A stretch of 64,000 nt of DNA from assembly GCF_023558375.1 (NCBI RefSeq), contig NZ_CP083761.1, positions 4,171,001 to 4,235,000 of the forward strand, in the 5' to 3' direction. Every line of letters begins with the position of its first letter. Within the stretch, counting starts at the first letter, position 1. The position numbers and the translations under genes are program-made. This DNA comes from Chroococcidiopsis sp. CCMEE 29 (lineage in GTDB: Bacteria > Cyanobacteriota > Cyanobacteriia > Cyanobacteriales > Chroococcidiopsidaceae). The notes below the pieces were generated by a model that saw nothing but the letters and a program-made list of their open reading frames with translations, was not told the origin of the DNA and made no database searches. This document shows positions 2,484-61,906 of the stretch, one piece after another.

Positions 2484-2502
2484 AGAGACAAGGAGAAGGA
2501 TT

Positions 2503-2585
2503 TTGGATGTTGAATTTTGGATTTTGGATTAGGAAATCTCCCCCTGCTCCCCCTGCTCCCCCTGCTCCCCCTGCTCCCTAATCTC
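2503..2585. repeat. Composite short-unit repeat block (ATCCAAA heptamer plus AGCAGGGGG nonamer, inverted)
   Basis: Between lptB and the permease gene lie tandem TTTTGGA-type heptamers (about 2503-2530) followed by four copies of a CTCCCCCTG nonamer (2539-2579). Read on the minus strand the order is nonamer then ATCCAAA heptamers, the same order as the blocks at 55.1 kb and 61.1 kb. It sits in the untranslated spacer and does not break the lpt run. Confidence 0.85.
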
Positions 2586-2599
2586 TACTCCCTAGTTCA

Positions 2600-3775
2600 A
2601 TGACATCAGCCAGCTACAAGTTTTCTAAGCCTACAAAACCGCTGGTTCCTGGGCCTTCGCTCATGGATCGCTACATTGCCACTGAACTACTCCTGCCATT
2701 TTTGTTTGGTGTGGGAGCCTTTTCTTCAGTTGGCGTGGCAGTTGGCATCATGTTTGACCTGGTGCGGAGAGTGGTGGAATCTGGGTTGCCGATTAACATA
2801 GCCTTAAATGTGTTTTTGTTGAAGCTACCCGCTTTCGTTGTCCTTGCTTTCCCAATGTCCACGCTGCTTGCTGCCTTGATGACCTACAGTCGGTTGTCTA
2901 GCGATAGTGAACTGATCGCTCTGCGTAGCTGTGGAGTGAGTATCTATCGATTAGTGCTGCCTGCTGTCATCCTAAGTTTTATCGTCACGGGGATAACATT
3001 TATATTTAATGAGCAAGTTGTACCAGCGGCAAACTACCAGGCTACTGTCACCCTAGAACGAGCACTGAAGCAAGAAAAACCAGCGTTTCAGGAAAACAAC
3101 ATTTTCTACCCCGAATATCAAGAAGTTAAGCAGCCGAATGGTGACGAAGCAAAAATACTTACTCGCTTATTTTATGCCGATCATTTTAATGGTCAGCGTA
3201 TGCAAGGCTTGACGATTGTGGATCGTTCCCGCGAAGGTCTAAATCAAATCGTGGTAGCTGATTCAGCTGAATGGAATCTAACCCAAAATACTTGGGATTT
3301 TTTCGATGGCACTATCTATCTAGTTTCTCCAGATAGCTCCTATCGCAACATTGTGCGGTTTGAACATCAACAGCTGAAATTGCCCCGGACACCGTTAGAT
3401 ATAGCAGCAAGAGGGCGTGATTCTGATGAGATGAATATTGCCCAAGTCCGAAAGCAGCTAGAGCTTGCTCGCCTCAGTAATGATGACAAAAAAATTCGTA
3501 GGTATAAGCTTCGGATTCAAGAAAAAATTGCTTTGCCATTTGTATGTGTTGTTTTTGGCTTAGTAGGCGCAGCTTTGGGAACCAAACCTCAGCGCACTGG
3601 CAGAGCAACGAGTTTTGGTATTAGTGTGGTTGTGATTTTTAGCTATTACTTACTCATGTTTATCAGTAGCCAGCTAGGCTTGGCGGGTATTCTCTCTCCG
3701 TCTGTATCAGCCTGGTTGCCGACTATGTTTGGTTTTGGGGCAGGCGGTTTGCTTTTATTCCGAGTCGCAAAGTAA
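2600..3775 (+). CDS. LptF/LptG family permease (YjgP/YjgQ)
   Basis: This 391-residue protein is an LptF/LptG-type inner-membrane permease that partners LptB and feeds lipopolysaccharide to LptA. It shows MDRYIATELLLPFLFGVGAF near the N terminus, three N-terminal transmembrane helices with AFPMSTLLAALMTYSRLSSD (the family's cytoplasmic coupling region), a soluble beta-jellyroll middle (about residues 150-270), and three C-terminal helices beginning RIQEKIALPFVCVVFGLVGA. Cyanobacteria usually have one such gene acting as both LptF and LptG, so I leave the symbol open. It is the third gene of the lptA-lptB run, 117 bases after lptB, the gap being filled by repeats. Confidence 0.92.
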   Translation: MTSASYKFSKPTKPLVPGPSLMDRYIATELLLPFLFGVGAFSSVGVAVGIMFDLVRRVVESGLPINIALNVFLLKLPAFVVLAFPMSTLLAALMTYSRLSSDSELIALRSCGVSIYRLVLPAVILSFIVTGITFIFNEQVVPAANYQATVTLERALKQEKPAFQENNIFYPEYQEVKQPNGDEAKILTRLFYADHFNGQRMQGLTIVDRSREGLNQIVVADSAEWNLTQNTWDFFDGTIYLVSPDSSYRNIVRFEHQQLKLPRTPLDIAARGRDSDEMNIAQVRKQLELARLSNDDKKIRRYKLRIQEKIALPFVCVVFGLVGAALGTKPQRTGRATSFGISVVVIFSYYLLMFISSQLGLAGILSPSVSAWLPTMFGFGAGGLLLFRVAK

Positions 3776-14999: not shown

Positions 15000-17900
15000 T
15001 TAATTTGAGTCAGAAACTCGCTTATTTGTAAGCCGAAGTAATTTTCTTTCTGAGCCGCAACTGATAGGGATAATTTTGTTATCTACGGAACTTTTGAATT
15101 CTACTGCCCCTAGAGCTTTCAGAGTAGTTTTTTGAGCTACTGTTAAACTCGTAGCACCAGTGATATTCATCCCCTCATAGGGTCTTTCAATTCTTAAAGT
15201 TTTTAGGCACTCACCCGTTAGAATATCCCAAATCTTGATCGTTCCATCCTGACTACTACTAGCTAGAGTATTGCCTTCAGGACTGAAAGCCACTGACCAG
15301 ATCCAACCCGTATGTCCCTGCAAAGTCTTTAAAGCTTGACCAGTCTTCACATCCCATAGCTTTATTGTTTGGTCATGACTACCACTAGCTAGAGTATTAC
15401 CTTCAGGACTGAAAGCAACAGACTGAATCCAGTCGCTATGTCCCTGCAAATTTCTAATCCATTTACCAGTACTGATATTCCATAACTTGACTGTGCCATC
15501 ATCACTGCCACTAGCCAAAATCTTGCCTTCAGGACTAAAGGTAACTGAACTGACTGGTCTAGCGTGTCCCTCCAAAACTCTCAAAACTTCACCGGTACTG
15601 ACATCCCATAGTCTGACTGTTTGGTCGACACTGCCACTAGCGAGGATACTACCTTGAGGACTGAAGGTGACTGAGCGGATTATACTTGTATGTCCTTGTA
15701 AGGTTTTTAAAACTTGACCAGTGCCGATATCCCAAAGGCTAAGTGTTTGATCTGCACTACCACTAGCGAGGAGATTACCCTCAGGACTAAAGGCAACTGA
15801 CCAAACCCAACCTGTATGTCCTTGCAACGTTCTTAAAGCTTGACCAGTGGTAATATCCCATAGCCTGACTGTTTGGTCATCACTCCCACTAGCCAAAATC
15901 TGACCATCTGGACTAAAAGCAACTGACCATACTCCATTACTATGACCGCGAAAGGTTTTTAAGGCTTGACCAGTGGTAATATCCCATAGCCTGACTGTTT
16001 GGTCATCACTGACACTGGCAAGTATGTACTCACACTCTTGCTGATAGGTTTGCCGCACAGGACAGAAAGCAACTGACCAGATTCCATTACTTCTCCCAAG
16101 CCAAGTTCTGATACACTGACCACTACTGATATCCCATAACTTAACGGTTTGATCTGCACTGCCACTAACAAGGGTTCGACCATCAGCAGCAAAGGCAATT
16201 GACCAGATCCAACTTGTATGTCCCTGCAAGGTTTTCAAGGTTTGACCCGTGTTAATATCCCATAGTTTTATCGTTTGGTCATGACTGCCACTGGCAAGTG
16301 TATTACCCTGAGGACTGAAAGTAAGTGACCATACTCCATCCTTATGTCCCTGCAAGGTACTTAGAAATTTTCCAGTACTAACATCCCACAACGTTACTAA
16401 TTGGTCTTCACCACCAGTAGCAAGAATTTGACCATCTGGGCTAAACGTGACCGATCTTACTCCATTGTCATGTGCTTGCAAAGTTCGCAATGCTTGACCG
16501 GTGCTAACATCCCATAACATCACAGTCTGGTCATCACTACCACTGGCTAGGATTTTACCCTCAGGACTAAAGGCAACCGTTCTGACTCGATGCGTGTGTA
16601 CCTGTAAGGTTCTCAGGCACTGTCCAGTACTAGTGTCCCACAACCTAACCGTACAGTCGTCACTGCTACTAGCGATGGTTGTACCTTGAGGACTAAAGGC
16701 AACGGCTCTGACTCGATTTGTGTGTGCTCGCAAGGTTTTCAAGCATTGACCAGTTCCAACGTTCCACAACCTGACAGCATAGTCACTACTACCGCTGACA
16801 AGTGTACTACCGTCTGGACTAAATGCAATTGAGCGAATCCATCCAGTGTGTCCTTTACAAGTAACAAGCTGTTTTCCATCCTCTACTTGCCACAAGTGAA
16901 TCTCACCATTAGCATCACCAGTAGCCAAAAGCTTGCCATCTTGACTTAAGGCAACTGATAAAACACCACCCAGCGTTTCAGCAAAAACAGATTTAGCTAA
17001 ATCTGCATGAGCAAAATTTACATTGTGCAAGCTTACACTTTGTAGATTAGCTTGCCAAACGCTGAGGTCAGAAAAATCATAGCCGCTTATGTCAGTTTCC
17101 ATCTGACAAAGTAGATTCAGGATATTTCCTGCTGCGTATCCGGGTTGGCGTGGCGATCGCTCTCTCAATATCAATAAAATTTGAATTAGCTGAGCTTCAA
17201 TGTTACTTGTGCTATTAAAAACAGTGTTTAACTCATCGATAATAGACTTGAGAATAAGCTGAGCTTGAGTCTCTCGCACGTAGTCTTTTGCCTGTGCCTT
17301 AAGTAAAGCGTAACTGTTGAACAGCTCTATTTTCTGAGTTGCTATCTGATCGCAAACTTGCTTTATTAGTCGCTCAGTGACATACTCCATCACTACAGGT
17401 TGGAGCGTGAACATGGCTGAACTTTTCTCAATTAGCGATCGCCTACTCAGCGATTCTAGAGCCTCCAGTAATCTTGACTTCGCCACTGGCGTTACAAAAT
17501 CATCTTGCAGTTCTGCAATTAAAGTCGGCTCTCGATTAATTGCTAACCAGTATAAAATCTGCTCTTCTAAAGTTGACAAACGATTAAATTGCTGCTGTAA
17601 AAGCTGATGAATTCCATTAAATACGGTTGTTCCTTGGTCTATAAAATTAGAAATATTGCCATCAAATAACTCTTTAATTGATGTTGCAACTATTTTTAAA
17701 GCAAGAGGATTACCTCTATAGTAATCAATTAACTTTTCAAGTTTGTCTACTGTACCCGATACACCTTTGGATTTGAGAATTTCTTGTCCTTCTAATTGTG
17801 GCAAGCCAGTTAGCTGTAACGCACGGACAGGCAAGGTTTCTCCCTCTAGGATTGCTATTTCTTCCGGCTTCTCTCGGCTGGTTATGACTAAGCAGCTTTG

Positions 17901-43934: not shown

Positions 43935-43969
43935 CGAAGTATGAAGTATGAAGTATGAAGTATGAAGTG
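43935..43969. repeat. GAAGTAT heptamer tandem repeat
   Basis: Five tandem units of GAAGTAT (the last diverged) lie just upstream of the start of the 500-residue ORF on the minus strand, in what should be its leader. Confidence 0.88.
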
Positions 43970-44047
43970 TAAAACGTTAGTCTGAGTGTTTTAATCCTTC
44001 AGCCTTTAGCCTTCATCCTTCATAGATGCCCTGATTTTATCGAAAAT

Positions 44048-47000
44048 ATGACCTCCTCAATCCCCCAGTCTGATAGCAAATTCATCTCAGAAGCGATCGC
44101 CCGGTTGCGCTTTTGTACTCAAGTTAGTGTTCAAACCAGTTGGCAGTGCTGGGAAGATGTTGACCTTGCCACGGCGGAGGCAAATGCTTGGAGTGTCCCT
44201 GCCAATATCTTGACAAAGCCTAACTGGACAGTGCGAGAGCTGAATGCCAAAGGACATGTTGCTTGGTCTGGTGGGCGACGCGTGCTGTGGTTGGCTCAAA
44301 GATTGATTGTTCCCCAAGATTTACAGGGGTATCCTCTAGAAGGCTTATCTTTGCGGTTAGCACTGACTTGGTGGGCAGAAGCCGCTCAAATTTATGTCAA
44401 TGATCGGCTGGTACAAGAAGGAGATTTATTTGATTGCTCAACCAGGGTACTGCTGAGTCCAACGGTTACACCCGGAGAAGAAATCACTGTTGTTTTGCGG
44501 TTGGTGAGTCCGGCTCACGATCAGGGGGCATTGGTGCGATCGCTCTGTATTTATGAATCAACCAGTGACGATCAGCTCGAACCTGGGTTTATCGCTGATG
44601 AATTAGCTGTGTTGCAGTGCGATCTAGAAACCTTTGCTCCAGAAAAATTAACTACCCTGGCGGCAGCGGTGGCAGAGATTGATTGGTCTGCCCTACCAGA
44701 CCGACAAAAGTTTGAGCGATCGCTCCTCCAAGTCCGGTCTTCACTCCAATTCCTCAGTGATGGACTCAGACAACGGCAGATTTATCTGCTAGGTCATGCT
44801 CACTTAGATCTAGCATGGCTATGGCCTGTGGATGAAACTTGGCAAGTTGCTCAAAGCACATTCGAATCTGTTCTCAAGCTTCAGCAAGAGTTTCCGTTGA
44901 CGTTTTGTCATTCTACCCCGGCGCTCTATGCCTGGATTGAGCAGCATCGCCCTGACTTATTTGCCGCTATCCAACAGCAGGTAAAAACTGGATGCTGGGA
45001 AGTTGTCGGCGGCTTATGGGTGGAACCAGAGCTTAACCTGATCAATGGCGAATCGATTGTCCGCCAGCTGTTGTATGGACAGCGCTACGTTCTAGAGAAA
45101 TTCGGCTCTATTTCGACCGTCGCCTGGCTACCGGACAGTTTTGGCTTTTGCGCTACTCTACCGCAGTTTCTCAAGCAAGGAGGAATTGAATATTTCGTCA
45201 CCCAAAAAATGCGCTGGAACGACACCACCAAATTTCCTTATCAGGCTTTTTGGTGGCGATCGCCCGATGGCACTGAGCTATTTAGTCTGATGTCTGCCCC
45301 GATTGGTGAAGGCATTGATCCAATCAAAATGGCATCCCATGCTTGTGAATGGGAAACTCAAACCAGTCTGCCAATAACCCTCTGGCTCCCCGGTGTTGGC
45401 GACCACGGCGGTGGTCCCACCCGCGATATGCTGGAAGTTGCTAAACGCTGGCAAAAATCCCCCTTCTTCCCCCACCTAGAATTCACCACCGCTCAAAGCT
45501 ATTTGCAGCAGATTAGGGGTCAGGGGTCAGGGGTTAGGGGTCAGGGAAATGCTCTATCTCCCCCTGCTCCCCCTGCCTCCCCTACTCTCCCTACCTGGGA
45601 AGATGAACTCTATCTAGAGTTCCATCGCGGCTGCTACACCACTCATGCAGAGCAAAAGCGGTGGAATCGCCGTTGTGAAGGATTGTTATATCAGGCAGAA
45701 CTCTTTGCGAGTTTGGCAACATTGAGTGCTGGGGTTAATTATCCCAAGGCTGAGTTGGAAGCTGCTTGGAAGCAAGTTTTATTTAACCAGTTTCACGACA
45801 TTTTACCCGGTTCATCTATTCCGCCAGTTTATGTAGAGGCAAATTCCTCTTGGCAAGAGGTGGAACATGTTGGAGGGGAGATATTGCAGCAGTCTTTAAG
45901 AGCGATCGCCTCTCAAATTAACTTCCCGACACCCCCGCATCCTGAAGCACAGCCAATTGTAGTCTTCAATCCTCTCAGCTGGAAGCGATCGGAAGTAGTT
46001 GCTATTTCCTTGCCAATACTTGGGCAACAATTAACTATCTATAACTCAGAAGGTAACCACCAGCTACCTTCCCAGCTAAGTAATGCCTCAACCTTACTTT
46101 TTCTCGCTACCGATATCCCCGCTATTGGTTACAGCATTTTTTGGGCAGTTTGTCAAGATCAAGCGATGCCTAATAAAGGCAATAGTACAAGCAATTTTAC
46201 AAAGAGTATACCATCAGATGATTCTTACTCTGACGAAAAAAAATTAACAGAAGATTGGAGTTTAGAAAATGAATTACTGCGGGTGATTGTCGATCGTAAA
46301 ACTGGTGAGTTGTATAGTATTTTTGACAAAATTCACCAGCGGGAAGTTTTGAGTGGTCCTGGTAATCAGCTGCAAGCTTTTCAAGATAGCGGTCAATACT
46401 GGGATGCTTGGAACATTGACCCCAACTATGACCAACATCCTTTGCCTCCAACGAAGTTGAAATCTATTCAATGGTTAGAACGCGGCTCAATTCAAACTTG
46501 CCTGCGCGTTGTGCGACAGCTGGGTCAATCTGAATTTTGCCAGGACTACATCCTGCAAGCTGGATCGCCAATTCTCAAGATTGCTACTACGGTTGACTGG
46601 CAAGAGCGTCATGTAGTGGTAAAAGCTGCTTTTCCTTTAAATGTGAAGGCAGATTATGCCACTTATGAAATTCCCTGTGGCGTTATTAAGCGACCAACCG
46701 AACCTAAAACTGCAGCCGAAAAGGCAAAGTGGGAAGTCCCTGCCCTGCACTGGGCAGACTTGAGTGCAGATAGTTATGGCGTGAGTTTGCTGAATGATTG
46801 CAAATACGGTTACGATAGTCAGCCAAATCAATTGCGCCTCACTTTGTTACGCAGTCCTAGTTGGCCCGATCCAGAGGCAGATCGAGGTAGACATGAATTC
46901 ACCTACGCCCTGTATCCTCACGGTGGTAGTTGGCAATCAGCCCAGACAGTTCGACGCGGCTATGAGCTAAATCTACCACTACAAGTGATGTTGCTTCCTT

Positions 47001-53897: not shown

Positions 53898-55079
53898 CTA
53901 TGAATCGCGCCGACTATATGGTAATTCATGGTTTATCGCCTCAATTTCCTGCTGCTCTAATTCATTAACCTCACTAATGTAAGAACGCAAAATTTGAGCC
54001 AGGCGACGATTACAAAAGCGGTGCAGACTGTAATTAGGAGTGGCTGGAAAACCGCGACGTTTTTTGTGACGTCCACCGGCACCCGGATCAAAAGTTTGGA
54101 TACCTTGGGCGATCGCCCACTCAATCGGTGTGTAATAGCAAGCATCAAAATGCAAGCACTCAATTTCTTGGAAACTACCCCAATATCGCCCATATAGCTT
54201 CTCACCCTTAGTGAGGCAAAAAGACATTCCGATCGGCTGCCGCTGATCTCGCTCAGTATAGGCGGCAACAAACAATACCCGATGGCGATAGTGAGCATAT
54301 AACTGCTCAAAAAACCGCTTCGTCAGGTACTTACTACCCCACCAGCCAAACTTATCACACGTATCCGCATAGAAGCTGTACATCAAAGGAAACAGTGACT
54401 TAGAGATTTCATCACCAGTTAGCGTCTGGAGTCGCAAGCCTGCTTTTTCCACAGCTTTGCGCTCGCGTTTAATATTGCGGCGCTGGTTGGCGTTGAATAC
54501 CGCCAAGTAGTCATCAAAAGTCTGAAACCCTAAATTCTGCCAAATATAGCTATGGTGCAGCCAAGGAGTGAAGCCGTGGCGTTCCAACACGAGTCGCCAT
54601 TGGGGATCTACATACAGGAAATGACAACTAGAGATGCGATGGCGATCGCAGAAATGGTCAATCGCATTCACCATTAACCCTGTGATTTCATCCTCATCTT
54701 CTCCTGGTGCAATTAAGAAGCGATAGCCCTCAGCGGGGGTAAACGGCGACATTCCCAAAAGCTTTGGGTAATACTGTACTCCTACGCGTTGAGCCAAATC
54801 AGCCCATTGGTGGTCAAACACAAATTCACCATAGCTATGACCTTTGATATATAGGGGAGCAGCAGCAATTAGCGATCGCTCTCGCCACACAGTCAAATGA
54901 TTTGGCAACCAACCCGCTTGTGCCGTGGCACTGCCAGAAGTTTCCAAATTGTTTAGCCACTCCCACTCTAAAAACGGCGTAGCGAGAGGCATAGCCAGGG
55001 CATCCCATTCAGATTGGGGGACTTCAGCAATTTTGTTAATCCAAGCAACAGAATAGCGAGGCTGTAGTTGTTCCACCAT
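53898..55079 (-). CDS. GNAT-like acyltransferase (COG3146/DUF482 family)
   Basis: This 393-residue protein belongs to the COG3146 family, sometimes called peptidogalycan biosynthesis proteins, which has a double GNAT fold like Fem aminoacyl transferases. Marks include SEWDALAMPLATPFLEWEWL at the start, NANQRRNIKRERKAVEKAGL in the middle, and LYGRYWGSFQEIECLHFDAC, GIQTFDPGAGGRHKKRRGFP and NYSLHRF near the end. Its substrate is not known. A 74-base stretch of its 3' part occurs again as a fossil at 51656-51729. Confidence 0.88.
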   Translation of the reverse strand: MVEQLQPRYSVAWINKIAEVPQSEWDALAMPLATPFLEWEWLNNLETSGSATAQAGWLPNHLTVWRERSLIAAAPLYIKGHSYGEFVFDHQWADLAQRVGVQYYPKLLGMSPFTPAEGYRFLIAPGEDEDEITGLMVNAIDHFCDRHRISSCHFLYVDPQWRLVLERHGFTPWLHHSYIWQNLGFQTFDDYLAVFNANQRRNIKRERKAVEKAGLRLQTLTGDEISKSLFPLMYSFYADTCDKFGWWGSKYLTKRFFEQLYAHYRHRVLFVAAYTERDQRQPIGMSFCLTKGEKLYGRYWGSFQEIECLHFDACYYTPIEWAIAQGIQTFDPGAGGRHKKRRGFPATPNYSLHRFCNRRLAQILRSYISEVNELEQQEIEAINHELPYSRRDS

Positions 55080-55093
55080 CGTGGGCTTTTAGG

Positions 55094-55213
55094 TAGGGAG
55101 CAGGGGAAGCAGGGGGAGCAGGGGGAGCAGGGGGAGCAGGGGGAGCAGGGGAAGAAAATCCAAAATCCAAAATCCCCTAACCCCTAACCCCTAACCCCTC
55201 ATCCCTCATCCCT
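55094..55213. repeat. Composite repeat: AGCAGGGGG nonamers, ATCCAAA heptamers, CCCCTAA heptamers
   Basis: In the spacer upstream of the acyltransferase gene lie about six GGGAGCAGG nonamers (55094-55150), then ATCCAAA units (about 55157-55173), then CCCCTAA/CCCTCAT units (55174-55213). The same order of three unrelated units recurs at 61081-61178. Confidence 0.9.
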
Positions 55214-55227
55214 CTCATTAGCCTAAT

Positions 55228-55935
55228 CTAATCTTTGAATCGTTGCCGACGATAGTGCAGAAAGACTTCTTGGTCGATTGTCTGTGCCGATAACAGTTCT
55301 AACCGTGGAGCCAACGCCGTATAAAATCCTGTTCCTTCTACTGGTGTAGGTGCTGTTGCACCACCCAAAATTATCGGACAAACTGTTAGCCAGAATTCAT
55401 CAATTAAATCAGCTGCCACTAAAGAGCCGACCAATTGACCGCCGCCTAGTACCGCTAAACGTGACAAACCAAGAGATGCTAGCCGTTGCAAAGCAGCTAC
55501 CCAGTCAATTTCCGGCGAGAAAGGCGTTGCTTCACATACCAGAATCTGTTCAAATTCTGAACGTCCTTCCCATTGCTTCGCCCCAACAGATGTTGTCAGC
55601 AACCAGCGGGGTACTGGTTGACGAAAGAAGTGTAATTGAGGATCAATATTAGCTTGTAGGGAAGCTAATATTTGCACTGGCTGGGGCGGTAATGAGCGCT
55701 CTTTTCTTTTTTGCAGCAGCTGAGGATTGGAAATGCTAAGCGTGGTGCCATAGGCGCGGAGGGTACTAGCACCGAATAAGACGGCATCAGCGGCAGCGAT
55801 TTGTTTTTCCAGGTGGGCTTTGTCAGCTCGGGAGGAAAAACGGGCTGGCGATCGCTTGACATCAGCAATCTTGCCATCCATACTCATTGCCAAAACTACT
55901 GTGGTGTAAGGACGATTTTTTCGATAGTCAGCCAT
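55228..55935 (-). CDS. RibD C-terminal / dihydrofolate-reductase-like reductase
   Basis: This 235-residue protein has only the reductase domain of RibD: PYTTVVLAMSMDGKIADVKR at the start, AADAVLFGASTLRAYGTTL, LGLSRLAVLGGGQLVGSLVA and FWLTVCPIILGG. The family reduces the ribosyl side chain in riboflavin synthesis in archaea and in some bacteria acts alone; in a cyanobacterium with a bifunctional RibD elsewhere the role may differ. The deaminase domain is absent. It is 148 bases upstream of the acyltransferase gene on the same strand. Confidence 0.88.
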   Translation of the reverse strand: MADYRKNRPYTTVVLAMSMDGKIADVKRSPARFSSRADKAHLEKQIAAADAVLFGASTLRAYGTTLSISNPQLLQKRKERSLPPQPVQILASLQANIDPQLHFFRQPVPRWLLTTSVGAKQWEGRSEFEQILVCEATPFSPEIDWVAALQRLASLGLSRLAVLGGGQLVGSLVAADLIDEFWLTVCPIILGGATAPTPVEGTGFYTALAPRLELLSAQTIDQEVFLHYRRQRFKD

Positions 55936-56340
55936 CGCTTCTCTTTTGTAACTTCTAAGTTAGTGTTGCGGTTCGTGATTGTAAAAAATGTAACTAAGTA
56001 AATGGATTGAAATTTGTTTACGCTCAACAGAGTGGTTCCCCAGGTTAATCTTTCTATAAATAATCCTTATACTGATTTAGTACCCCAAAATTTAGGTGTA
56101 TTATTTATAACAATTCATCTTCGGGTAGGAGGAAAGCATCTCACGTTTGGCAAAATTTATTTCATAAAAGTATCCGGAGAGTTGAAACTGCAATCGGTAG
56201 ATATCAATGATTTATGCGAAAGTGAGAGGCACTTTTTTGCCAGACCATGATTTCTAGACTAGTGAACAAATTTCTTTTCTAGCCGGTCTGTTTAAAAGTC
56301 ATTGCTCATTGGGTTTTGCATCTGCTTTGGGGGATATTAT
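55936..56340. other. Intergenic region, no convincing gene
   Basis: Between the RibD-like gene and the sensor kinase lie 405 bases. A 78-codon frame (TTG 56014 to 56250) is open but has an AT-rich, non-typical codon pattern, no ribosome-binding site and no recognisable motif; I leave it uncalled. Confidence 0.4.
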
Positions 56341-58485
56341 ATGGCTAAGCCCGGTCAATCCTCGTTTCGTCGTATTCTGCTATCGAGGATTTTGCTTCTG
56401 AGCGTACCAGTTTTACTGATCGGGGAAGCTGTGACTTTTAGGAAGGCACGCTCTAGCCTACTGGAGACTGCTCGCTGGAACTTAACTGAAAGTGCGGTGA
56501 CAAAAGGGGAAAGCATAAGTAATACCATCACTGCCTTAAAAGCAAACTTGCTGGTGGCGAGTCAAACAACTGTTCTTCAGTCTGGTTCTGCAAAAGAAGC
56601 TCAACACTATCTTGAGCAGCTAGCGCCAAAACTGCCAAAACATACTCAGTGCATTCAACTTACAAATCTTGAAACGGGAGAGCTCATCGCTAGTACCTGT
56701 GGCAACGAGCATATTGGCTCGTATAGAGCGTATTATTATTCGTGGCCTCACCAACAAGAGCGAACCCTGCTAGACTCCGAATACATTTATGTTAAGCCGG
56801 TATTGGCTCCAGACTTACCTCAGTCGGCATCGCAGTTGAGCAAAGCAGATACTAACTATCCCCAAGGTCAACTGCAATTGCTTCTATGTGCTCCAGTTTA
56901 CAATAGTGCGGGTCAACTAAGTTATGCCCTAAGTATTCAGTCTGCCTTGTACCAAAAAGCAAGTGATGAGCCAGGGTTGCTAGCAGGCTCTACTGTAGTA
57001 ATCGATCAAGAAGGAACAATTCTGGCGCATCCCATCAGGTCACGGGTGGGGCGAAATATCGAGCAGGAGGCAGATGCAGAGCGACTTAAAAGCATTGTGA
57101 AAAACGCGATCGCTGGCCGAAAAGATTTTTTGCACCTGTCTTTCGATCAAAACGAACCAGAATTACTTGCCGGCTACAACGTCATCCCCAGTCCGATTAC
57201 CAACAAGCCTAATCAACACTGGGTTATATTAGCCGTTACACGCCTAGATAATGCACTTTTTGGACTTCGAGATATTCAAGTCATCCTGTTTGTGCTGACA
57301 GTTGGCTTGTTAGGAGCAAGCCTGTTGGCAACATTATACATAACTCGCGATTTGGCACGACCACTAGAAAAATTGAGAGACTATGCTCTGAATCTTCAAA
57401 GTTACCACGTAGCAGAACGGGTGCCTCACAACTTCCAAATCCGAGAGGTGGAACAACTGGCGGAGGCACTCGACCACATGGTGGAACGCCTAAAAGCATC
57501 GGCAGAAGAGATAGAAACTGCTTGGGAAGAAGCCCAAGCCTCCAATCAGCTCAAAAGTGAGTTTTTAGCAACAACCTCCCATGAGTTGAGAACCCCCCTT
57601 AACGCTATTATTGGCTGCGTTCGACTCGTTCGGGACGGCTGCTGCGATAACCGGGAAGAAGAAGTAGATTTTCTAGAGCGAGCTAATGAAGCAGCAATTC
57701 ACTTGCTTGGCATTATTAATGACTTACTCGACATTGCCAAAATTGAAGCTGGTAAGCTGTCAGTGACCATGGTACCCACTGATCTGTGCCAAGTTATCAA
57801 GGAAGTAATCAATCTCCAGACCGTTCACATTCAACAAAAAGGCTTGGAACTGATAGTTACCGATTTGCAAGAGCCAATTTTTGTTCAGGCAGACCTAGCT
57901 AAGCTAAAGCAGGTGTTACTTAATGTGATCGGCAATGCAGTTAAGTTCACAGATCGGGGAAGCATCACCATTAAGACGCAGATAGAACCAACAACCGACC
58001 ATCTGGATAATGGCAGTATCTCCTCATCGGTGGTTATTACCGTACAGGATACGGGAGTTGGCGTTGACCCTGCCCAACAGCATAAACTGTTTCGCCCCTT
58101 TGTGATGGTAGATGGTACAACAACGCGCAAGTTTGGTGGCACTGGCTTAGGGCTTGCCATTTCACGGAACTTAATCGAGCTGATGGGAGGGAGTATTATG
58201 CTGTGTAGTGCTGGTAGCGGCAAGGGAACAACGGTAGCGATCACTTTGCCACTAATGGATGTTTCGCTAGTGCGTCCGCCCTTGACATCTGCACAGCCAT
58301 CACGCCAGGCTCAGCATAACAGTTCCGACGTTAGCGTTGATGGCGTTAGTTCCACCACAGTGCAGCCAGAAGCCTTAGCGTCTCCGAAGCAGAAAACCTT
58401 CGAAAGGGTGGGAGATCCTGTATTCGATCCAGCTAGCTGCATGGTTAGTGTAACATTTGATGAAAATCTAAACGGCAAAAGATGA
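56341..58485 (+). CDS. Membrane sensor histidine kinase (Cache-HAMP-HisKA-HATPase)
   Basis: This kinase of about 714 residues has an N-terminal helix (ILLSRILLLSVPVLLIGEAV), an extracytoplasmic dCache-like sensor (about 40-310), a second helix (VILFVLTVGLLGASLLATLY), a HAMP linker, and a phosphoacceptor H414 in TSHELRTPLNAIIG. The ATPase shows N-box LLNVIGNAVKFTDRG, G1 VQDTGVGVDP and G2 FGGTGLGLAISRNLIELMGG. A 75-residue Ser-rich tail follows, with no receiver domain. I start at ATG 56341 (MAKPGQSSFRR); the frame is open 13 codons further. No response regulator lies nearby, so it is an orphan kinase; the ligand is unknown. Confidence 0.93.
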   Translation: MAKPGQSSFRRILLSRILLLSVPVLLIGEAVTFRKARSSLLETARWNLTESAVTKGESISNTITALKANLLVASQTTVLQSGSAKEAQHYLEQLAPKLPKHTQCIQLTNLETGELIASTCGNEHIGSYRAYYYSWPHQQERTLLDSEYIYVKPVLAPDLPQSASQLSKADTNYPQGQLQLLLCAPVYNSAGQLSYALSIQSALYQKASDEPGLLAGSTVVIDQEGTILAHPIRSRVGRNIEQEADAERLKSIVKNAIAGRKDFLHLSFDQNEPELLAGYNVIPSPITNKPNQHWVILAVTRLDNALFGLRDIQVILFVLTVGLLGASLLATLYITRDLARPLEKLRDYALNLQSYHVAERVPHNFQIREVEQLAEALDHMVERLKASAEEIETAWEEAQASNQLKSEFLATTSHELRTPLNAIIGCVRLVRDGCCDNREEEVDFLERANEAAIHLLGIINDLLDIAKIEAGKLSVTMVPTDLCQVIKEVINLQTVHIQQKGLELIVTDLQEPIFVQADLAKLKQVLLNVIGNAVKFTDRGSITIKTQIEPTTDHLDNGSISSSVVITVQDTGVGVDPAQQHKLFRPFVMVDGTTTRKFGGTGLGLAISRNLIELMGGSIMLCSAGSGKGTTVAITLPLMDVSLVRPPLTSAQPSRQAQHNSSDVSVDGVSSTTVQPEALASPKQKTFERVGDPVFDPASCMVSVTFDENLNGKR

Positions 58486-58671
58486 AGTAGGAAGTTAATA
58501 GAACAGCTACTTTGGGAAAACTTGAAGAAAAACAACATTCCCATTTGCGGTTGTAAATCAACATAGGAGAGATCAACAGCAAAATCATTCCACAACCCCA
58601 CCATCTTGAAGCATGAACCCACTTACTGGGGTGAGGTTACTCATTTAAAATAAAAAAAAGGAAGTGAGAAT

Positions 58672-59112
58672 ATGGCACCTATTCAGCGTACTGCACAAGC
58701 GGTTTGGAGTGGAGACTTACGCAGCGGCAACGGTAAAATCAGCAGCACTAGTGGCATTCTCAAAGAAACCCCCTACAGCTTTGCCACTCGGTTTGAGAAC
58801 TCTCCAGGCACTAATCCCGAAGAGCTAATTGCGGCAGCCCATGCTGCCTGTTATAGCATGGCATTTGCTTTCACGCTAAGTAACAAAGGATATCAACCAA
58901 CAAGCGTTGAGACACAGGCAGTATGCTCACTGGAACCTCAAGCAACAGGAGGTTTCAAGATTACAAAGATCCGGCTGGAAACGAGGGGACAGGTTCCCAA
59001 TATTGATGCAGCGACATTCCAACAGGTCGCACAGGAGGCTGAAGCGGGGTGTCCTGTCTCGAACGCACTACGTGGAGGAGTAGAGATTGAACTAGATGCC
59101 ACTTTGGTATAA
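58672..59112 (+). CDS. OsmC-family peroxiredoxin
   Basis: This 146-residue protein is an OsmC/Ohr-type thiol peroxidase that reduces organic hydroperoxides. The two catalytic cysteines are C60 (HAACYSMAF) and C127 (EAGCPVSNAL); the substrate arginine lies in FATRFENSPGTNPEE. These features place it in the OsmC branch. A weak AAGGAAGTGAG box precedes the ATG. It stands alone. Confidence 0.94.
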   Translation: MAPIQRTAQAVWSGDLRSGNGKISSTSGILKETPYSFATRFENSPGTNPEELIAAAHAACYSMAFAFTLSNKGYQPTSVETQAVCSLEPQATGGFKITKIRLETRGQVPNIDAATFQQVAQEAEAGCPVSNALRGGVEIELDATLV

Positions 59113-59312
59113 TCGGTCAAATCCAGCACTATATTTCACCTCAACTCTCCCTACTATTACGCTGCTACTCGGGAAGATCTGCAAAGGGTAGCTTATTTGC
59201 TACTGGCCCACGATTCCAGGCACTAACGATTGAATTTGCAGAATTATTCCCCGTCTTTGCTGTGAGAATTGCTTAAAATCACAGTGAAGCATCCTGTTCT
59301 TGAGCCTAGCGC

Positions 59313-60530
59313 ATGGCAAAAACACGTTCCCGCCCTCCTAAAGCAGTTATTAAAACTTCTCTTGATTATTTCTACGACAAACCGGGTAGCCTGCCAGGAA
59401 CCCTCAGCATTGAAGCAGATGCTACACCACCAGTCATTGATTTGATCGACTACAACCAGACTAATGTTACCCGCAAGCAAGTAGCGACACCGGAGGAATG
59501 TATTCCCTACTTAGATACTGACTCTGTTTCTTGGGTCGATGTACAAGGCTTGGGCAGTGAAAACGTTTTGCAACGGATCGGTCAGGTCTTTAAGTTGCAT
59601 CCGCTCGTCCTAGAAGATGTGGTCAATGTTCCCCAGCGTCCGAAAGTGGAGGACCACGAAGACCAGCTGGTAATTATTACCCGCATGGTAATGCCTAAAG
59701 GCAGCGAAGTGGGTTTCTATAGCGAGCAAGTGAGTTTTGTCTTAGGCCAACATTACCTATTGACAGTACAGGAAGAGCCAGAACATGATTGTTTTGAACA
59801 GGTGCGAGTGCGTATTCGCAACAACAAAGGTACGCTTCGCAAACATGGCGCTGATTATTTAGCATACACACTTATAGACGCCATCATCGATGGCTTTTTT
59901 CCTGTGTTGGAAGATTATGGCGAGCGAATAGAGGAGTTAGAGGAAGAAGTAGTAACTAACCCGACGCGGCAAACTTTAGAAAAAATTTATCGAATCAGGC
60001 GAGATTTACTGAACCTGCGCCGTTCAATTTGGCCGCAACGGGATGCGATTAATTCCCTGATCCGCGATGGCAGCGATTTAATTAGCGATCATGTACAAGT
60101 TTACCTGAGAGACTGTTACGACCATGCAATTCAAGTACTAGATATGGTGGAAACCTATCGGGAATTGACTTCTGGATTAATGGATGTCTATTTGTCAGCA
60201 GTCAGTAACAGGATGAATGAGATTATGAAGCTGCTGACAGTGATTTCGTCGATATTTATTCCACTCACTTTTGTTGCTGGTATCTATGGTATGAACTTCA
60301 ATACAGAAACATCTCCCTGGAATATGCCTGAGCTGAATTGGTACTGGGGTTATCCACTTTGTTTAGCAAGTATGACAGCGATCGCCGCTGGGTTAGTCTA
60401 TTTCTTCTGGCGGCGTGGGTGGTTTGAGAATTTTTCAACAATCCAGGATGATTCTAGTGCGACGAATATAAGTAAAACTGTTATAACCACTCCACGCTTA
60501 AGTAGAGTGCGTAAAGCGCCGCCTCGCTAA
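59313..60530 (+). CDS. corA: Magnesium/cobalt transporter CorA
   Basis: This 405-residue protein is a CorA-type divalent cation channel. A long cytoplasmic N-terminal part is followed by the stalk helix and two C-terminal membrane helices. The selectivity-filter motif G326-M327-N328 lies in GIYGMNFNTE, preceded by IPLTFVAGIYG; the second helix is CLASMTAIAAGLVYFFWRRG. Length is slightly above the usual 316-370, from an extended N terminus (about 40 residues of low conservation). Confidence 0.96.
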   Translation: MAKTRSRPPKAVIKTSLDYFYDKPGSLPGTLSIEADATPPVIDLIDYNQTNVTRKQVATPEECIPYLDTDSVSWVDVQGLGSENVLQRIGQVFKLHPLVLEDVVNVPQRPKVEDHEDQLVIITRMVMPKGSEVGFYSEQVSFVLGQHYLLTVQEEPEHDCFEQVRVRIRNNKGTLRKHGADYLAYTLIDAIIDGFFPVLEDYGERIEELEEEVVTNPTRQTLEKIYRIRRDLLNLRRSIWPQRDAINSLIRDGSDLISDHVQVYLRDCYDHAIQVLDMVETYRELTSGLMDVYLSAVSNRMNEIMKLLTVISSIFIPLTFVAGIYGMNFNTETSPWNMPELNWYWGYPLCLASMTAIAAGLVYFFWRRGWFENFSTIQDDSSATNISKTVITTPRLSRVRKAPPR

Positions 60531-60600
60531 TCACTCACTACAAAAAAGTCTTCTCTCCCTCTGCCCAAAACCTACACGCACGACTACACTGGATTAAGGG

Positions 60601-61038
60601 AGAGAGTAGGCGCAGGCAGTTGCAGATCAGTCAAGGCAGCTGGTCTGAGGAAAGTCCGGGCTCCCGAAAGACCAAACTTGCTGGGTAACGCCCAGTGCGG
60701 GTGACCGTGAGGATAGTGCCACAGAAACATACCGCCTTCATGATTTTGGATTGCCGATCTTGGATTTTGGATTCAATCCAAAATCCAAGATCTAAAATCT
60801 AAAATTGTTGGGGGTAAGGGTGCAAAGGTGCGGTAAGAGCGCACCAGCAGCGTTGAGAGGCGCTGGCTCGGTAAACCCCGGTTGGGAGCAAGGTCAAAGG
60901 AACTATGGTTGGTCTTTTACCAGTTCTACTGCCTTAGAACCGCTTGAGGCGTCTGGCAACAGATGTCCCAGATAGATAACTGCCCTCTAAGTGGCACTGT
61001 CGCTTAGAGAACAGAACCCGGCTTATGACCAACTCTCT
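60601..61038 (+). ncRNA. rnpB: RNase P RNA
   Basis: The catalytic RNA of RNase P, which trims tRNA 5' ends. Conserved parts are visible: CTGAGGAAAGTCCGGGCTCC (CR-I, P4 5' side), GTAACGCCCAGTGCGGGTG, GGATAGTGCCACAGAAACAT, GGTAAACCCC and, near the 3' end, the CAGAACCCGGCTTATG block. The terminal stem AGAGAGT/ACTCTCT defines the ends. The total, about 438 bases, is longer than in unicellular cyanobacteria because about 70 bases of repeat (60738-60808) lie in the P12 region. No protein gene overlaps it. Confidence 0.95.
60756..60792. repeat. Perfect 18-base palindrome inside rnpB
   Basis: GATCTTGGATTTTGGATT (60756-60773) is exactly complementary to the 18 bases at 60775-60792, with a single-base centre. 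It is built of the same ATCCAAA/TTTGGAT heptamer units as the intergenic repeats and would form a long helix in the RNA. Confidence 0.93.
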
Positions 61039-61080
61039 TCCCCACCTCTTAACCCAGTTGCAGATAGTCGTACAAACCAA

Positions 61081-61178
61081 AGCAGGGGAAGCAGGGGGAG
61101 CAGGGGGAGCAGGGGGAGCAACAGTGTAATCCAAAGTCCAAAATCCAAAATCTAAAATCCCCTCGCCCCTAACCCCTG
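61081..61178. repeat. Composite repeat: AGCAGGGGG nonamers, ATCCAAA heptamers, CCCCTAA heptamers
   Basis: Nonamers GGGAGCAGG (61081-61122) are followed by ATCCAAA/GTCCAAA units (61128-61160) and CCCCTAACCCCT (61161-61178), ending directly before the rnc start. Order and orientation match 55094-55213. Confidence 0.9.
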
Positions 61179-61180
61179 AA

Positions 61181-61906
61181 ATGACCCTGAGTTATCCCCG
61201 TCGTCAAAAGCAACTTCAAAGCTTGGTACAGAAATTGGGACTTCCAGCACAAGCACCAGTACAGTGGCAGTTGCTTGATTTGGCGCTGACTCATCCGACT
61301 ATCTCAGCACAGGCAAACTACGAGCAACTGGAATTTGTGGGGGACGCAGTCGTGAGGCTGGTGGCGGCTGAGGTTTTATGGGAGACTTATCCCGATTGTC
61401 CAGTTGGGGAGTTTGCAGCGATTCGTTCTGTGTTAGTGAGCGATCGCATCCTAGCTCAACTGGCGGCTGAATATGGGTTGGAGCTATACCTCTTGGTTGC
61501 TGGCAGTGCCAGCACTGATAAAGCCGGTCAAGAGACACGCCTGGCAGATGCTTTTGAAGCCGTGCTAGGGGCACTCTACCTGAGTACACACACTCTGAAA
61601 CTGGTACGCCCTTGGCTAGATCCTCACTTCAAACAGTTAGCAGCACAAATTCGCTCCGATCCAGCCAGGCTCAACTACAAAGCTGCCCTGCAAGAATGGA
61701 CTCAAGCTCACTTTAAAGTGTTGCCAGAATATCGAGTTCAGGAAATAAGTCAGCCGCGTGACTCCCTTGAGCGGTTCGCTGCTGAAGTCTGGCTCCAAGA
61801 TCGGCAACTGGGTCAAGGCACAGGACGCTCAATCAAGGCAGCTGAACAAGCTGCGGCTCAGGTCGCTTTTTTAGCGATCAGTGATGCCCAAAAAAATGGG
61901 GAGTAA
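61181..61906 (+). CDS. rnc: Ribonuclease III
   Basis: This 241-residue endonuclease cuts double-stranded RNA in rRNA maturation and mRNA turnover. The catalytic signature is EQLEFVGDAVVRLVAAEVLW, and the second acidic patch lies in ETRLADAFEAVLGALYLS. The C-terminal double-stranded-RNA-binding domain begins LNYKAALQEWTQAHFKVLPE and ends SIKAAEQAAAQVAFLAI. It starts three bases after the composite repeat, which therefore occupies the ribosome-binding-site region. Confidence 0.94.
   Translation: MTLSYPRRQKQLQSLVQKLGLPAQAPVQWQLLDLALTHPTISAQANYEQLEFVGDAVVRLVAAEVLWETYPDCPVGEFAAIRSVLVSDRILAQLAAEYGLELYLLVAGSASTDKAGQETRLADAFEAVLGALYLSTHTLKLVRPWLDPHFKQLAAQIRSDPARLNYKAALQEWTQAHFKVLPEYRVQEISQPRDSLERFAAEVWLQDRQLGQGTGRSIKAAEQAAAQVAFLAISDAQKNGE

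What the first reader, a model, noticed from the sequence alone, without database searches (positions are those of the whole stretch)
55094..61178. A polar composite repeat made of three unrelated short units
At 55094-55213 and 61081-61178 the same order is seen on the plus strand: GGGAGCAGG nonamers, then ATCCAAA heptamers, then CCCCTAA heptamers. The block at 2503-2585 has the first two in the same relative order on the minus strand, and 45512-45597 has nonamers then CCCCTAA/CCCCTGA, also on the minus strand. So four loci keep one polarity although each unit family also occurs alone (heptamers at 9.74, 22.25, 30.2, 33.05 and 63.16 kb). Independent slippage would not give a fixed order; it suggests that composites move or are copied as a unit. 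Short heptamer repeats are known in filamentous cyanobacteria; a conserved order of three families is what I find notable.
Basis: partly seen in the sequence, partly recalled or inferred. Interest (0 to 1): 0.68.

Follow-up and report, generated by a model that had tools for sequence, protein, structure and literature searches.

The report
Polar composite repeats copied as units
The three short repeats do keep one fixed order, because about fifty copies of one composite, joined by a short non-repeated linker, are scattered through this cyanobacterial genome; related cyanobacteria use other repeats but mostly keep the same rule (G-rich repeats first, C-rich repeats last), for a reason still unknown.

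Summary
The order nonamer (N) - ATCCAAA (A) - CCCCTAA (H) is real at the stated places and holds genome-wide: N..A pattern matches 65, A..N 0. A non-repeated stretch, AGAGTGTA, joins N to A at 50 places; 42 of 50 have all three parts in order, none reversed by the script's thresholds, and flanks are unrelated. The composite is therefore copied as a unit; slippage alters the arms. A wider rule lies behind it: whatever the unit, adjacent tandem arrays run G-rich then C-rich, identically on both strands, 77 pairs against 3, between genes of any orientation and inside ORFs (6 to 1). At orthologous sites sister genera lack arrays or carry other units; complete two-arm cases I read there run G-first. 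Predicted hairpin stability does not explain the order. Exceptions exist: one C-first N/A array in another genome, and non-tandem C-first stem-loops in this genome. The copying machinery and cause of the polarity are unproven. New variant of cyanobacterial STRR/dispersed repeats.

The parts
55096..55214 (+). Composite N (55096-55151) - A (55155-55175) - CCCCTAA (55174-55199) - CCCTCAT (55196-55214), between a RibD_C gene (55228-55935, minus) and a FemAB-like gene (53898-55079, minus)
61081..61178 (+). Class-I composite: N - GCAACAGTGTA - A - CCCCTNN, between rnpB and the RNase III gene (ATG at 61181)
2498..2585 (-). Composite N then A (no CCCCTAA arm), between an ORF at 1746-2483 (ABC-ATPase-like by eye) and an ORF at 2600-3775
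45512..45597 (-). Composite N - GATAGAGCATTT - CCCCTGA/CCCCTAA, in frame inside the GH38 ORF
43936..44022 (+). Further G-first pair with other units: GAAGTAT array then CCTTCAG array, just before the GH38 ORF
60742..60805 (+). GATTTTG array then AATCCAA array inside rnpB; same unit as the composite's middle part, G-first, predicted helix
60603..61040 (+). rnpB, RNase P RNA class A (RF00010), immediately 5' of the 61.1-kb composite

Best explanation
The blocks are members of lineage-specific dispersed repeat families whose arms are tandem short repeats. Shown: one family, (H-reverse)-N-AGAGTGTA-A-(CCCCTNN), has about 50 copies in this genome, in fixed order, at unrelated places, between genes of any orientation and sometimes in frame inside genes; unit numbers differ between copies. 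Inferred: a new copy is laid down as a whole at a permissive site (spacer or protein loop), the arms then grow and shrink by slippage, and further small repeats land inside them. Over longer times the units at a site are replaced, so sister genera carry other units there, while the G-array-first, C-array-last arrangement is kept. Inferred and least certain (about 0.25): the polarity arises at birth, because a G-rich 3' end can fold back and prime copying of itself, giving G-then-C on either strand, more readily than a C-rich 3' end can near neutral pH; later unit copying inherits that order. I see no need for a host function in most copies.
For: Shared non-repeated stretch: the search word GCAAGAGTGTAATCCAAA (end of an N unit, AGAGTGTA, one A unit) has 34 exact and 50 copies with at most 2 mismatches; its reversed control, at up to 3 mismatches, has 0 forward and 2 reverse. 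Of the 50, N upstream 47, C-rich arm 44, all three 42, reversed parts 0; A downstream 50, which the search word itself requires. Own-genome matches of 92-93% over 97 bp. Flanks unrelated except two pairs of overlapping loci and repeats up to 109 bp. No clear strand preference relative to genes: >> 16, << 10, >< 15, <> 5, in ORF 4. In-frame N-A composites in a debranching-enzyme loop and the MutL linker where some relatives have shorter loops. G-first polarity with different units: own 32:1, family 18:0, Nostoc-like 25:2, two further genomes 2:0; distinct unit pairs 23:1, 18:0, 19:2, 2:0; with a stricter skew threshold 27:0, 10:0, 16:1, 1:0. At the 55-kb site all 9 of 9 relatives that I judged array-bearing have the G excess in the first half; 3 of 3 relatives of one genus are G-first at the MutL linker. 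In Nostoc-like genomes the arms are the same unit inverted more often than by re-pairing (12 of 25 versus 3.3 expected), as fold-back copying predicts.
Against: In the own genome and its family the two arms are usually different units, with no excess of inverted same-unit pairs (4 of 32 versus 5.3 expected; 2 of 18 versus 1.0), which fold-back copying alone does not give. C-first arrangements do exist: one A-array-then-N-array in genome G305, three TRF pairs, one H+H- pair, and in this genome 8 of 9 strict C-run-then-G-run cases are non-tandem stem-loop elements. C-rich repeat oligonucleotides of Nostoc kept i-motif signatures at pH 6.5 (PMC4692102 passage), so C-rich ends are not inert. No target-site duplication or mobilising enzyme was found. 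Array pairs within a genome share ancestry, so 77:3 is not 77 independent events. Single arrays also show a weaker gene-related bias.
Confidence: 0.6

Rival explanations
1. Positional selection: arrays are tolerated only when the G-rich strand points away from the nearest gene (G-type after stops, C-type before starts), for instance to avoid spurious ribosome-binding sites or R-loops; composites are G-first because both arms obey this.
For: Single arrays: after stops G 57 versus C 38, before starts C 46 versus G 20, odds ratio 3.45, Fisher p 0.0002. Passages of PMC4692102 report the same kind of bias for G-rich repeats in Xanthomonas and Nostoc. The rule would give G-first in every spacer type.
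Against: The single-array bias is far weaker than 77:3. Inside ORFs, at least 60 bases from either end, the order is still 6 G-first to 1 C-first, and the rnpB pair is G-first. Array-free spacers show little such skew: mean G minus C per 30 bases 0.44, 0.13, -0.04 after stops and 0.04, 0.06, -0.44 before starts in the three samples.
Confidence: 0.2
2. RNA hairpin function: composites are kept as terminators or mRNA stabilisers, and polarity reflects the folding RNA.
For: The 55-kb copy folds at -54.9 and -56.7 kcal/mol on the two strands. 15 of 50 class-I copies lie between convergent genes (no background rate was computed).
Against: Over 50 copies native folding averages -37.5 versus -35.0 shuffled (mean z -0.7), and swapping the arms gives -36.7, so stability does not prefer G-first. 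No terminator-like site at either composite, though that scan allows loops of 3-8 bases only. Some copies are in coding sequence and 26 of 50 lie between same-strand genes.
Confidence: 0.1
3. REPIN-like element mobilised by a RAYT/Y1 transposase.
For: Short, inverted-arm, dispersed; REPINs are reported in Nostoc punctiforme (PMC3116915, abstract and passages). The genome has one Y1_Tnp match.
Against: Around that gene I found no N, H or linker words, one single A word about 2 kb away, and no inverted repeat of 12 bp or more. Arms are tandem arrays of changing unit.
Confidence: 0.05
4. Purely local, independent slippage of three unit families that happen to be neighbours.
For: Unit numbers vary and each family also occurs alone.
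Against: Fixed order, shared non-repeated stretch and no reversed arrangement among 50 copies.
Confidence: 0.03

Closest known systems
STRR (short tandemly repeated repetitive sequences) of cyanobacteria, including those in rnpB (Vioque 1997; seen only as a reference in PMC2858038; the rest recalled)
   Same: Heptamer tandem arrays, mostly intergenic, also inside rnpB; the ATCCAAA unit here lies in rnpB too.
   Different: Here heptamers are parts of an ordered multi-unit composite with a fixed linker, about 50 copies, and a G-first/C-last tendency across genera.
G-rich GGGNATC / GGGGA(C/T)T repeats of Xanthomonas and Nostoc sp. PCC 7120 (PMC4692102: abstract start, section 11 whole, passages)
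   Same: G-rich short arrays, mostly intergenic, nearest their 5' neighbouring ORF; Xanthomonas has 70 and 75 convergent inverted pairs in two genomes, which I read as the same G-then-C order.
   Different: That study reports only a few inverted pairs in Nostoc, having searched GGGGA(C/T)T; the partner arm here is often a different unit. A linker, copying as a unit and site reuse are not in the parts I read.
Small dispersed repeats of Elhai et al. 2008 (Genome Res 18:1484; not held; seen as a citation, content recalled)
   Same: Very small mobile repeats in cyanobacteria, recalled to sit in tandem repeats; this genome has similar nested inserts.
   Different: The composite is roughly 80-130 bp with variable tandem arms. 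Direct comparison was not possible.
REPINs / MITEs (PMC3116915, abstract and passages)
   Same: Dispersed, non-autonomous, inverted-arm elements.
   Different: Arms are variable tandem arrays; no RAYT flanked by them was found; no terminal repeats or target duplications shown.
Intrastrand triplex motifs (PMC4666352, abstract and passages)
   Same: G/C-rich, intergenic, abundant in some cyanobacteria.
   Different: Separate C-G-G elements in this genome resemble them, by my reading, more than the composites do.

Membership tests
STRR | Tandem 7-nt arrays, many loci, largely intergenic (definition recalled) | tested here: met
   264 ATCCAAA and 244 CCCCTRA two-copy matches; in the 800-kb sample 111 of 169 period-7 arrays lie outside naive ORFs. 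The nonamer arm (period 9) is outside the strict heptamer definition.
G-rich quadruplex-forming repeats (Rehm et al.) | At least four G3+ tracts with loops of up to 5 | tested here: met
   Read directly at 55.1 kb, GGGGG tracts separated by AGCA. Folding into G4 not tested.
Dispersed repeat copied as a unit | Shared non-repeated sequence among copies with unrelated flanks | tested here: met
REPIN/REP | Element copies flanking the genome's own RAYT | tested here: not met
   One Y1_Tnp match; none of the N, H or linker words in the 5 kb around it, one single A word, no inverted repeats in 1.2 kb. Whether it is a RAYT was not established.
REPIN/REP | Conserved palindromic REP core with GTAG or CGTC tag | not tested
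   No motif search was run; arms read as tandem arrays.
MITE | Terminal inverted repeats and target-site duplication | tested here: inconclusive
   Nearest held relatives are other genera (flank identity about 67-88%), so exact empty sites could not be aligned.
Intrinsic terminator | GC-rich stem followed by a T-run | tested here: inconclusive
   No site within 55094-55213 or 61081-61178, but the scan allows loops of 3-8 only; the minus-strand side of the 61.1-kb copy is followed by TTTGGTTTG.
Intrastrand triplex motif | Three G/C-rich tracts able to form a triplex in one strand | not tested
   Composites were not scanned for triplex potential; C-G-G elements elsewhere were noted.
Small dispersed repeats (Elhai) | Sequence identity with published SDR families | not testable with these tools
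   Paper not held.

The most novel reading that the evidence does not exclude
Cyanobacterial short-repeat arrays obey a directional, sequence-independent assembly rule. Composites form and re-form at the same permissive sites in different lineages with unrelated units, nearly always G-array then C-array, because they are born by a strand-polar DNA process (self-primed fold-back of G-rich 3' ends, or an unknown ssDNA copying enzyme). The conserved thing is the grammar, not the sequence.
Probability: 0.22. Interest if true: 0.8.

Novelty: new variant of a known kind. Interest (0 to 1): 0.55.

Why it matters
Short tandem repeats are usually treated as isolated slippage products. Here they are parts of ordered elements copied whole, with a polarity that holds when the unit sequences change and also where no start or stop codon is near. 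That gives a simple, testable signature for how such arrays are born in bacteria, and offers a reading of the published bias of G-rich repeats towards their 5' neighbouring gene in Nostoc: a C-rich partner arm of a different unit may fill the other side (this was not tested in that genome).

Tried and rejected
G-run/C-run scan without tandem arrays: it did not show the polarity clearly (GC:CG 123:93, 32:18 and 9:9 at three thresholds). Reading the strict cases, 8 of the 9 C-first ones are non-tandem C-G-G stem-loop elements and one joins a neighbouring composite; I then used TRF arrays, so the rule is claimed for tandem arrays only. A first TRF run with periods 6-12 gave 28:1 (own), 11:0 (family) and no pairs in two further order relatives. 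Hairpin stability as cause of the order: rejected. RAYT mobilisation: disfavoured. Composite at 55080-55220 against plasmid and phage collections: no match (a low-complexity filter applies). Exact linker word in genome contigs: one hit, in Sphingobacterium, not followed up; records of this genome or near ones may be left out there. Species name: not established; C2 matches to Nostoc, Gloeocapsopsis and Gloeocapsa plasmids were partial. Of 56 linker matches, the 6 with 3 mismatches were left out of the counts; by eye two (L204, L206) are real composites. In the 386-genome order test N..A matched in 8 genomes besides this one (array-like by eye in five, all of one family) and A..N once in each of 7; of the four A..N cases I read, G305 is a true A-array-then-N-array, G272 has an A array before a single N word, two are single N words. 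Orthologous sites: at 55 kb 20 of 28 relatives' loci had both flanks; at rnpB-rnc 15 of 28, where no composite of this kind was seen in the spacers as printed, three of them cut at 260 bases. Linker patterns III and V found nothing in the sample.

Full report
Observation. Seen whole, the window has six neighbouring pairs of a G-type and a C-type tandem array: 2.5, 43.9, 45.5, 55.1, 60.7 and 61.1 kb. All six run G-array first, C-array last on the plus strand. This is a strand-symmetric statement: the reverse complement of such a pair is again G first, so the minus-strand blocks at 2.5 and 45.5 kb obey it as well. The 60.7-kb pair lies inside rnpB and is predicted to fold into a long helix. The 61.1-kb block is wedged between rnpB and the RNase III gene. 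The 45.5-kb block is coding sequence inside a GH38 alpha-mannosidase-like ORF.

Genome-wide order. In the 6.39-Mb genome the exact two-unit counts are 64 for the nonamer, 264 for ATCCAAA and 244 for CCCCTRA; reversed-pattern controls gave 0, 1 and 0. The pattern N..(0-30)..A matches 65 times and A..N not once (overlapping matches, not sites). A systematic sample of 40 stretches of 20 kb gave the neighbour table N+A+ 8, N+H+ 5, H-N+ 6, A+H+ 8, H+A+ 1, H-A+ 2, H+H+ 8, H-H+ 1, H+H- 1, A-A+ 1, with no other arrangement of N with A or H. The usual grammar is reverse heptamers, nonamers, ATCCAAA, forward heptamers.

Copied as a unit. Reading the nonamer loci in hand (42 distinct) showed that many share a non-repeated stretch, AGAGTGTA, between N and A. 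I searched for it with the word GCAAGAGTGTAATCCAAA, which includes the end of an N unit and one A unit: 34 exact and 50 copies with at most 2 mismatches; six more with 3 mismatches were left out of the counts. Of the 50, 47 have N upstream, 44 have a C-rich arm downstream, 42 have all three parts, 25 also have reverse heptamers upstream, and none has N downstream, an A array upstream or C-type heptamers upstream by the script's thresholds. That all 50 have A downstream follows from the search word. Flanks outside the element are unrelated, apart from two pairs of physically overlapping loci and repeats of up to 109 bp. Independent slippage cannot give a shared non-repeated stretch. Other linkers recur too: in the 800-kb sample the pattern for GAAAATTCAATC was found 6 times, as often as the class-I linker. 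The 45.5-kb type has an 80-bp match at 90% elsewhere in the genome and further weaker ones. The exact class-I word is absent from the genome-contig collection except one Sphingobacterium hit not followed up.

Orthologous sites. Held relatives are other genera of the family or beyond. At 55.1 kb both flanks were found in 20 of 28 relatives' loci. In nine of them, from three genera, I judged the spacer to carry period-7 or period-9 arrays of other units (for example GGGAGCTGA then AACTGTC/AACTGAT; GGGGGACAA; AGAGGTC; one of the nine, L098, is degenerate). The first half has more G than C in 9 of 9, and exceeds the second half by 8 to 77 bases. In seven with short array-free spacers the difference is -10 to 5. 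Of four more distant relatives one spacer is very long; the other three reach into the next gene and show differences of 8 to 21 without arrays. At rnpB-rnc both flanks were found in 15 of 28, with no composite of this kind in what was printed. Three in-gene sites behave alike. The MutL linker has N-A in this genome; 3 of 3 relatives of one genus have a GGGAGCA-type array followed by other, C-type or AATTC-type repeats, and others have shorter sequence. The debranching-enzyme loop has N-A here; one relative has GGAGTCA repeats then a C-rich stretch, others have only one type or a shorter loop. The GH38 loop has a G-first pair here, GGGAGCA-type then AACTACC in one relative (G007), a short palindrome in two members of that same genus, a G-rich array without clear partner in one, C-rich stretches alone in three, and no insert in six by eye. 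Sites are reused and units are replaced; complete two-arm cases are G-first.

A sequence-independent polarity. Using TRF arrays of period 7-9 regardless of sequence, and pairs at most 80 bp apart, G-first versus C-first pairs number 32:1 (own, 40 stretches), 18:0 (family, 18 stretches), 25:2 (Nostoc-like family, 16 stretches) and 2:0 (two further genomes, 4 stretches; both pairs in one of them). Distinct unit pairs number 23:1, 18:0, 19:2 and 2:0. With a stricter skew threshold the counts are 27:0, 10:0, 16:1 and 1:0. The own C-first pair is ordinary-looking coding sequence; of the two Nostoc-like ones, one lies between two neighbouring G-first composites and one follows a G-first composite. 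Pairs within a genome share ancestry, so the effective number of events is smaller than 77. Gene context does not matter: in the first TRF run the own G-first pairs were 12 tandem, 5 convergent, 2 divergent, 3 with one gene undetermined and 6 in naive ORFs. With stricter ORF rules there are 6 G-first and 1 C-first in-gene pairs over the three samples.

Limits of the rule. It is about tandem arrays. A scan for G-rich and C-rich runs without requiring tandem arrays was ambiguous, 9:9 at the strict threshold, because the genome also has C-first, non-tandem stem-loop elements. In 386 genomes of the phylum the N..A order was found in this genome and 8 others; the A..N order once in each of 7 others, and at least one of those (G305) is a true A-array-then-N-array.

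What does not explain it. Predicted RNA folding of 50 class-I copies is only slightly better than shuffled sequence, and arm-swapped versions fold about as well (means -37.5, -35.0 and -36.7). No terminator-like site was found at either composite, with the reservation that the scan allows short loops only. The one Y1_Tnp gene has no composite around it. Array-free spacers show little skew. Single arrays do show a gene-related bias (57:38 after stops, 20:46 before starts, G:C), in line with published observations on Xanthomonas and Nostoc G-repeats (PMC4692102, section 11 and passages). Selection by position may therefore contribute, although it is much weaker than the pair rule and cannot act inside genes in the same way.

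Mechanism. Copying as a unit plus slippage is well supported. The origin of the polarity is not settled. I favour birth by fold-back copying of a G-rich 3' end: it is strand-polar, gene-blind, and predicts arms of the same unit. That prediction holds in the Nostoc-like genomes (12 of 25 versus 3.3 expected) but not in this genome (4 of 32 versus 5.3) or its family (2 of 18 versus 1.0), where I must assume later arm replacement.

Known work. Paper searches returned papers that use STRRs, the G-quadruplex heptamer study, triplex motifs, REP/REPIN papers and TAACTGA repeats. None of the passages I read describes linker-bearing composites or the G-first rule with unlike arms. The key paper on cyanobacterial small dispersed repeats (Elhai 2008) is not held and the original STRR papers were not read, so an earlier description there cannot be excluded.

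Noticed in passing
window 60742-60805: rnpB carries GATTTTG and AATCCAA arrays as an inverted pair, the same unit as the composite's middle part (known type: STRR in cyanobacterial rnpB).
   Followed up: partly
L039:15328, L056:14337, L304:17506 and others: An insert of about 36 bp, GAACTCGGGG(C/T)CCCCACG..GTGGGGATTAGGGGCA, lies inside G-rich arrays: in nonamer arrays here (5 of 6 sample hits by eye) and in a GGGGACT array of a Nostoc-like genome.
   Followed up: partly
L033:14076, L040:1632, L058:10173 and others; one in the window: C-first, non-tandem C-G-G elements with CCTCTCCC..GGGAGAGG cores (7 in the 800-kb sample), resembling published intrastrand triplex motifs.
   Followed up: no
L194 (C1:5090997), MutL linker: A class-I composite lies in frame in the mismatch-repair protein MutL, whose function would affect repeat slippage; one sister genus has other G-first repeats at the same linker.
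   Followed up: partly
L052:8989-9049: N array followed by a CATCCTT array in frame inside an rsmG/gidB ORF.
   Followed up: no
G000 contig C2 (L088-L090): Three 20-kb samples of the 673-kb second contig gave only 2 heptamer hits and no N or A arrays, unlike the chromosome.
   Followed up: no
window 15252-16010: Six copies of a 126-bp repeat, WD40-like by eye.
   Followed up: no
L168, L186: Insert ACGC(T/C)ACTTTGCAAGGGCGGGGGGAACCCCCGCACGCAAGT inside the ATCCAAA array of two copies, another hairpin-like nested repeat.
   Followed up: no
L332, L333 (GH38 loop of two relatives): A short palindrome, GTAGAGACGTTNCATGNAACGTCTCTAC by eye, sits at the loop where this genome has its composite.
   Followed up: no
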